The notes under the pieces: model-generated
The model's database searches: none
The model's input: the letters and a program-made list of their open reading frames with translations, nothing else
Told to the model about the DNA's origin: nothing
Translations under genes and position numbers: made by a program
NCBI GenBank assembly: GCA_020425885.1
Contig: JAGQRA010000579.1
Coordinates: 1 to 22,348, forward strand
DNA length: 22,348 bases
Source: Planctomycetota bacterium
GTDB lineage: Bacteria > Planctomycetota > UBA1135 > UBA2386
Direction of reading: 5' to 3'
Shown here: positions 8,889 to 8,961 of the stretch, piece after piece
Layout of the letters: every line of letters starts with the position of its first letter
Numbering within the stretch: position 1 is the stretch's first letter

Positions 8889-8951
8889 TCAGGCGTCAGA
8901 GCGAAGAGAGAGAGAGAGAGAGAGAGAGAGAGAGAGAGAGAGAAGACGCAT
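8889..8951 (-). other. Out-of-frame leader ORF encoding Leu-Ser signal peptide
   Basis: From ATG 8951 the minus strand reads Met-Arg-Leu, then alternating Leu-Ser encoded by CTC TCT, and ends in Arg-Ser-Asp-Ala and a TGA at 8891-8889. If the dinucleotide tract had 17, 20 or 23 units instead of 19, the frame would continue as FALTPDAIGQTRTEFVFHVYVDP into the beta-helix ORF. That gives a textbook signal peptide: Arg at position 2, a hydrophobic core, and a likely cleavage near PDAIGQ. This is presumably the true 5' end of the downstream gene. Confidence 0.7.
8905..8942 (-). repeat. (CT)19 microsatellite in the signal-peptide coding region
   Basis: 38 uninterrupted bases of AG on the plus strand, which is CT on the coding strand, beginning nine bases into the leader ORF. 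Every reading frame of a CT tract encodes alternating Leu and Ser, so slippage keeps the hydrophobic core and changes only the downstream frame. No other perfect short repeat of this length was seen in the window. Confidence 0.95.
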
Positions 8952-8956
8952 GGGAA

Positions 8957-8961
8957 CTCCT
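8957..8961 (-). promoter_or_regulatory. Shine-Dalgarno AGGAG for ATG 8951
   Basis: AGGAG on the minus strand is followed by a five-base spacer (TTCCC) and ATG at 8951. This ribosome site marks 8951, not GTG 8860, as the start used by the beta-helix gene. Confidence 0.65.

What the first reader, a model, noticed from the sequence alone, without database searches (positions are those of the whole stretch)
8889..8961. A (CT)19 microsatellite forms the signal-peptide core and sets the frame of a large exoprotein: probable phase-variable switch, OFF here
On the minus strand, AGGAG, a five-base spacer and ATG (8951) lead into CT repeated 19 times, read as Leu-Ser-Leu-Ser. In this copy the frame stops at 8889. 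The beta-helix ORF is in the next frame, open through the tract, with no ATG and no signal peptide of its own. Adding one unit or removing two fuses them and yields Met-Arg-Leu, the Leu-Ser run, then FALTPDAIGQ and the known domain opening. All frames of CT encode Leu/Ser, so slippage leaves the hydrophobic core intact and toggles only expression. Contingency loci of this form are known in host-associated proteobacteria; I do not know one described in planctomycetes with the repeat as the hydrophobic core itself.
Basis: partly seen in the sequence, partly recalled or inferred. Interest (0 to 1): 0.88.

Follow-up and report, generated by a model that had tools for sequence, protein, structure and literature searches.

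The report
Repeat-switched signal peptides in planctomycete exoproteins
A run of 19 CT units in the start of a large secreted-protein gene throws it out of frame, and most relatives of this gene in other planctomycete bacteria carry a frame-breaking repeat of their own in the same place, so the gene family is probably switched on and off by repeat slippage, as surface proteins of Neisseria and Helicobacter are.

Summary
Relatives carry it further. Of 40 distinct family genes, this one included, 38 have readable 5' ends, and 28 of those hold a pure short tandem repeat between start codon and mature protein. Units are 1, 2, 4, 5, 7 or 8 bases, never 3, 6 or 9. The 9 kb of 5' windows hold 28 repeats, the 94 kb of gene bodies one. 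The unit changed at least 15 times on the gene tree. Best-ranked starts are out of frame in 21 of 28, in frame in 4, unclear in 3. Three related OFF genes still show purifying selection (dN/dS 0.23-0.31). Best explained as family-wide translational phase variation in the signal peptide. It works like Neisseria opa and H. pylori oipA, in another phylum and protein family. Not shown: length variation among cells of one strain, and any phenotype. Six searches of an open library listed no planctomycete case.

The parts
8957..8961 (-). Ribosome-binding site AGGAG, five bases before the ATG; overlaps the stop (8960-8962) that closes the beta-helix frame upstream
8889..8951 (-). Frame started by ATG 8951 in this copy: 20 residues, ends at TGA 8891-8889 (OFF state)
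8905..8942 (-). (CT)19 tract; encodes Leu/Ser in all frames and would form most of the hydrophobic core of the signal peptide; the proposed switch
   Evidence: 12-residue hydropathy maximum 2.02 in the open frame against a median of 2.2 for 20 relatives, two of them mis-located
8879..8905 (-). End of the signal peptide (FALTPDAIG) with the probable cleavage point before Q (codon 8878-8876), lined up by eye with the AxA-Q of relatives
   Evidence: cleavage inferred, no signal-peptide predictor was available
6203..8878 (-). Mature exoprotein, open to its stop, about 890 residues; member of a planctomycete family without a Pfam or NCBIfam match for the window protein
7601..8503 (-). Approximate extent of the right-handed beta-helix in the predicted model (about residues 120-420 of the 885-residue piece)

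Best explanation
This is a contingency locus. Slipped-strand mispairing at the (CT)n tract changes its length by whole units. One frame in three joins ATG 8951 to the exoprotein through a Leu-Ser signal peptide (ON, exported); the other two end within about 20 codons (OFF). The assembled copy, with 19 units, is OFF. The same design governs most of the family in one planctomycete order, with up to five repeat-bearing loci seen in one genome (five of six family genes in G003), so a population would hold cells with different combinations of exported beta-helix proteins. Shown: the sequence layout, the family-wide non-triplet repeats at one place, their near absence from gene bodies, turnover of the unit, mixed frames, and purifying selection on bodies of genes that are OFF. 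Inferred: slippage during growth, reversibility, export only when in frame, and the benefit (changing a surface or secreted protein under attack by phages or grazers, or bet-hedging on polysaccharides).
For: (1) 28 of 38 family genes have a repeat between -191 and +16 of the start of the profile match; unit length 1 in 6, 2 in 5, 4 in 5, 5 in 6, 7 in 3, 8 in 3, and 3/6/9 in none. (2) With the same thresholds, in all 40 genes: 28 repeats in 9,017 b of 5' windows, 1 in 94,470 b of gene bodies, 3 in 42,822 b further upstream. (3) In 1.14 Mb of three genomes, repeats of period >=2 outside the family are mostly 3/6-mers (13 of 21) or CG (5 of 21); 3 are CT/GA. Non-triplet share 22 of 22 in the family against 8 of 21 in background, Fisher p = 6e-6. 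(4) One whole 3.7-Mb genome (G003) has three (CT)>=7 tracts, and all three are the starts of family genes. (5) At least 15 unit changes among repeat-bearing rows on the tree. (6) Frames are mixed: 4 in frame, 21 out, 3 unclear. (7) L014, L015 and L016 are all OFF yet have open bodies of 880-889 residues and dN/dS 0.23-0.31. (8) In other gene families of the phylum, copies inside one genome differ in tract length: G437 7.5 against 15.5 units with the same leader (about 97% identity over 188 + 58 b), one in frame and one not; G313 16.5 against 19.0 (97% over 939 b; the longer tract is followed by ATCTATCTATC); G002 13.5 against 23.5 (86% over 369 b; the leaders also differ by other changes), one not in frame and one in frame.
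Against: No reads, so no proof that length varies within one strain; genomes are one per species and, where named, metagenome assemblies, in which repeat counts can be wrong. Ten of 38 genes have no repeat at my thresholds. The six homopolymer cases (C9-C12) are weaker, because the G003 sample holds 16 runs of 9-10 G or C in 366 kb, two of them family genes. L021 passes only just (3.6 units, short gene). Genes without a repeat are not clearly more often in frame: judged by me 7 of 10 against 4 of 25 clear cases (p = 0.004), but counted alike by the top-ranked start 4 of 10 against 4 of 28 (p = 0.17), or by the two best starts 7 of 10 against 8 of 28 (p = 0.03). In-frame copies (4 of 25 clear) are slightly fewer than one third (binomial p = 0.046; 7 of 28 with the unclear ones, p = 0.23). 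Start codons were chosen by a ribosome-site score and some have no recognised site (L002, L016, L044, L077). L070 is out of frame without any tract.
Confidence: 0.85

Rival explanations
1. The count 19 is an assembly error; the gene is simply in frame (17, 20 or 23 units) and constitutive.
For: The tract comes from a single 22-kb contig (contig length 22348) and no reads were available.
Against: Best-ranked starts are out of frame in 21 of 28 repeat-bearing genes, with units of 1 to 8 bases and from different assemblies. A constitutive gene has no reason to keep non-triplet repeats in its signal peptide.
Confidence: 0.06
2. Decaying gene: the tract has broken it and the body is a pseudogene.
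For: OFF frame in this copy.
Against: Bodies are open (no stops inside the listed matches); dN/dS is 0.23-0.31 among three OFF genes.
Confidence: 0.02
3. Recoding: the ribosome shifts frame on the repeat, or re-initiates downstream, so that 'OFF' alleles are in fact expressed.
For: Many alleles are out of frame although bodies tested are under selection.
Against: Units of six different lengths and many sequences share no one slippery motif. Among in-frame start codons listed between the tract and the profile start none had a ribosome site by my score, and in the window re-initiation at GTG 8860 would lack a signal peptide.
Confidence: 0.04
4. Neutral repeats tolerated in a loosely constrained leader, with no switching role.
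For: Signal peptides tolerate many sequences; slippage alone can grow repeats.
Against: Neutral repeats in coding DNA should be largely triplets or hexamers, as in the background of the same genomes (13 of 21), but none of 28 here is; with thresholds lowered to 11, 14 and 18 bases three weak ones of period 6 or 9 appear among the 40 genes, none of them the main tract. Most alleles are out of frame, which is not neutral for a gene under purifying selection.
Confidence: 0.04

Closest known systems
Neisseria gonorrhoeae opa genes, (CTCTT)n in the leader-peptide codons
   Same: Repeat between start codon and mature protein, inside the signal peptide; unit not a multiple of three; several loci per genome; surface or secreted product. 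One relative here (L075) even has the unit CTCTT.
   Different: Opa is an outer-membrane barrel (recalled), this is a large protein with a beta-helix; no direct sequence comparison was made. In opa one unit serves each gene copy (PMC3745409, passage seen); here units change between relatives. No experimental switching known here.
Helicobacter pylori oipA and other hop genes, (CT)n in the signal-sequence region
   Same: CT dinucleotide tract in the signal-peptide codons, ON/OFF by frame (oipA: PMC10564699, passages seen; the Leu-Ser reading and the other hop genes are recalled).
   Different: Different phylum and protein; a host pathogen against planctomycetes that are presumably free-living; oipA tracts are shorter (recalled).
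Right-handed parallel beta-helix polysaccharide lyases and tailspikes (fold only)
   Different: Foldseek E-values all above 1e-3, identity 6-17% in the rows shown; no catalytic residue was examined; function unknown.

Membership tests
Repeat-mediated translational phase variation (contingency locus) | Pure short tandem repeat with a unit not divisible by three, between the start codon and the body | tested here: met
   28 of 38 family genes; window (CT)19
Repeat-mediated translational phase variation (contingency locus) | Both in-frame and out-of-frame alleles occur | tested here: met
   Across the family 4 in, 21 out, 3 unclear; in/out pairs within one genome in other gene families. Alleles of one locus were not available
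Repeat-mediated translational phase variation (contingency locus) | Body kept functional by selection although OFF | tested here: met
   dN/dS 0.23-0.31 in three OFF genes; synonymous sites were saturated or nearly so in the other five pairs tried
Repeat-mediated translational phase variation (contingency locus) | Tract length varies reversibly within one strain or population | not testable with these tools
   One genome per species, no reads; only paralogue pairs with different counts were seen
Repeat-mediated translational phase variation (contingency locus) | Switching of the protein phenotype | not testable with these tools
   Needs culture or enrichment
Opa protein family (Neisseria) | Homologous outer-membrane barrel | not tested
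   The window protein matched no Pfam or NCBIfam family and its predicted fold holds a beta-helix, but no direct comparison with Opa was made
Right-handed beta-helix superfamily | Parallel beta-helix fold | tested here: met
Pectate lyase or alginate lyase/epimerase enzymes | Catalytic residues and sequence family | tested here: inconclusive
   No family match for the window protein; Foldseek matches weak; active site not examined

The most novel reading that the evidence does not exclude
A planctomycete order runs a phase-variable secretome: several large exoprotein families whose signal peptide holds a slot for a frame-breaking repeat. What is conserved is the slot and its non-triplet period, not the repeat, which is lost and born anew with a new unit again and again. 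One genome shows five such switches in this family alone, giving a combinatorial set of exported beta-helix proteins, probably outside any animal host.
Probability: 0.65. Interest if true: 0.85.

Novelty: new variant of a known kind. Interest (0 to 1): 0.76.

Why it matters
Repeat-driven phase variation is known mostly from host-adapted pathogens, where immune evasion explains it (established knowledge, recalled). Finding it as the rule in a family of large secreted proteins of planctomycetes asks what else selects for random switching: phages, protist grazers, or polysaccharide choice. The turnover of units of 1, 2, 4, 5, 7 and 8 bases at one place, with none of 3, 6 or 9, is a clean natural experiment suggesting that the frame effect itself is what is selected. 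It also means that automatic annotation will miss the start or signal peptide of many such genes, and it gives a signature by which other contingency loci can be found in metagenomes.

Tried and rejected
A scan of viral contigs with the window protein found nothing. A phylum sample of 392 genomes with the family profile (two candidates scored per genome) matched 20, with E < 1e-30 only in G003, G004 and G240; the other 17 were weak (E 5e-26 or worse) and not used. Order samples found 12 of 151 genomes (up to six candidates scored per genome), family samples 6 of 8 and 5 of 34. G010, the source of L018 (no repeat), is not among the 154 genomes of that order listed.

Rows dropped before counting: of 40 distinct genes, L029 and L080 were left out of the 38 because the contig ends before the leader (they are in the base counts and stand as 'none' in the tree). 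L021 (short gene, 3.6 units) was kept in the repeat counts but left out of the tree. L048, whose profile match begins only at position 77 although a (CT)7 lies upstream, was not counted; L085 and other matches without an N-terminus were not counted either.

Papers: searches on planctomycetes with phase variation, simple sequence repeats, contingency loci, slipped-strand mispairing and phase-variable listed no paper whose title or abstract start reports such a system in planctomycetes. Passages only were read of PMC4060949 and PMC3711429 (genome-wide surveys, this case not in the passages seen), PMC5354566 and PMC5845749 ('phase-variable' there is about microscopy). A search for print saying that the CTCTT repeat forms the hydrophobic core of Opa found no paper, so I do not claim it.

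Rejected: start at GTG 8860 (inside the conserved mature domain); pseudogene; re-initiation (see rivals). A possible promoter role for (CT)n directly after TTGA in G005 was noticed and only counted. The second exoprotein family shows repeats in only part of its members, so I claim it only as a parallel.

Full report
What is there. On the minus strand a good ribosome site (AGGAG, five-base spacer) precedes ATG 8951. After three codons a pure (CT)19 tract runs from 8942 to 8905. From the ATG the reading ends after 20 residues at 8889. One base over, the exoprotein frame is open from 8959 to 6203, but it has no ATG, GTG or TTG before GTG 8860, which lies inside the conserved start of the mature domain. 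The tract is not expected by chance.

The decisive comparison. I fetched DNA for relatives and located the start of the mature domain in each with a profile. This gave 40 distinct genes, the window's included; in two the contig ends before the leader. Of the other 38, 28 have a pure tandem repeat between -191 and +16 of the start of the profile match. The units are C (6 genes), CT (5), four-base units GCTG, CCTA and three cases of AAGG, five-base units GGACA, CCCGT, CTGCT, CTCTT and two of CTCTA, three different seven-base units and three different eight-base units. No unit is 3, 6 or 9 bases long. Minimum lengths were 9, 12, 15, 16, 17, 18, 20, 20 and 24 bases for periods 1 to 9, the same in family and controls. 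With triplet-type minima lowered to 11, 14 and 18 bases only three weak repeats of period 6 or 9 appear (in L003, L021 and L029), none of them the main tract. The bodies of the 40 genes (94,470 b) have one repeat; the DNA further upstream (42,822 b) has three. In 1.14 Mb sampled from three of the genomes, repeats of period two or more outside the family number 21; 13 are 3- or 6-mers and 5 are CG runs. The remaining three, all CT/GA, lie near the 5' ends of genes that look secreted (one of them belongs to the second family). One genome, G003, has exactly three long CT tracts in 3.7 Mb, and all three are the starts of family genes. Five of its six family genes carry a repeat at threshold; the sixth (L079) has a run of eight C.

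Turnover. On a tree of 39 mature domains the repeat unit changes at least 15 times among repeat-bearing rows (22 if absence counts as a state, which includes the two rows without a leader; quick tree, 10 of 36 inner branches open). Close relatives L014, L015 and L016 keep AAGG but with 10.8, 7.2 and 8.5 copies. So the slot persists while its content changes.

Frames. Ranking starts by ribosome-site score, 21 of 28 repeat-bearing genes are out of frame, 4 are in frame (L003, L008, L020, L046) and 3 are unclear because the second-ranked ATG is in frame (L021, L076, L081). Of the 10 genes without a repeat I judge 7 in frame, four by the top-ranked start and three by the second. That contrast is significant as judged (p = 0.004, or 0.02 with the unclear ones as in frame), but counted alike it is weak: 4 of 28 against 4 of 10 by the top start, p = 0.17; 8 of 28 against 7 of 10 by the two best, p = 0.03. 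Of the three remaining genes two have C7 or C8 runs below threshold (L052, L079); L070 has none. Three genes that are all OFF (L014, L015, L016) have dN/dS of 0.23-0.31 and uninterrupted bodies, which is not what abandoned genes look like; in the other five pairs tried, synonymous sites were saturated or nearly so, pN/pS 0.22-0.38.

Beyond the family. A second exoprotein family, without detectable similarity to the first, carries CT tracts in the same place in part of its members. Two paralogues in G002 differ in tract length, one in frame and one not, though their leaders also differ by other changes. Across 392 genomes of the phylum the layout GGAG-ATG-(CT)7 occurs in 13, while the reversed control pattern occurs in 1; in the order it is found in 6 of 154, control in 1. 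In G437 two gene copies with the same leader have 7.5 and 15.5 units, one in frame and one out. This is the nearest thing to observed slippage that one genome per species allows. Not all pattern hits are secreted proteins: L205, L207, L209 and L210, for example, do not look so.

Mechanism. The best explanation is slipped-strand mispairing that changes unit number and so joins or separates the start codon and the exoprotein. Because CT reads Leu/Ser in all frames, any in-frame length gives a usable core. Other units (GGAA, GGACA, C-runs) sit before the core, so the repeat need not be the core itself. Slippage, reversibility and phenotype are inferred.

Known systems. It works like Neisseria opa (CTCTT in the leader peptide; passage in PMC3745409) and H. 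pylori oipA (CT repeats in the signal-peptide region; passages in PMC10564699). Membership of either protein family was not tested directly; the resemblance claimed is of mechanism. Six literature searches listed no planctomycete report, in a library that lacks most subscription journals.

Limits. The window's own genome is not held, so its order is inferred only from its relatives. The family was found in 12 genomes of one order and in G010 outside it.

Verdict. Observation confirmed, interpretation supported and widened from one gene to a family-wide system. Missing is direct evidence of variation within a population.

Noticed in passing
L143, L145, L146, L147 (genome G005): Four of 47 distinct (CT)>=7 tracts looked at begin directly after TTGA, all four in this genome, in two cases shortly before an open frame that starts with a hydrophobic stretch: possible promoter-spacer switching of a second kind.
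   Followed up: partly
L137, L141, L149, L150 (genomes G009, G002): A second large exoprotein family (about 1000 aa, motif around PDGxWNxGEGF) with CT tracts in the signal peptide; L149 OFF with 13.5 units, L150 ON with 23.5, leaders also differing otherwise.
   Followed up: partly
L250 and L251 (genome G313): Two copies of another gene (97% identity over 939 b) with (CT)16.5 and (CT)19 after the same leader, the longer followed by ATCTATCTATC.
   Followed up: partly
window 20302-20368: A perfect 25-base tandem repeat, 2.7 copies, where several listed open frames overlap; period not a multiple of three.
   Followed up: no
window 17193-17370: Overlapping arrays of imperfect 15-base repeats inside long open frames.
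   Followed up: no
P0003, P0047, P0060, P0063: Family proteins from other sources whose predicted N-termini spell out repeats: THSLTHSL, SLSLSLS, ERERER, NRTEPNRTEP, as expected of in-frame alleles with 4-, 2-, 2- and 5-base units; their DNA was not seen.
   Followed up: no
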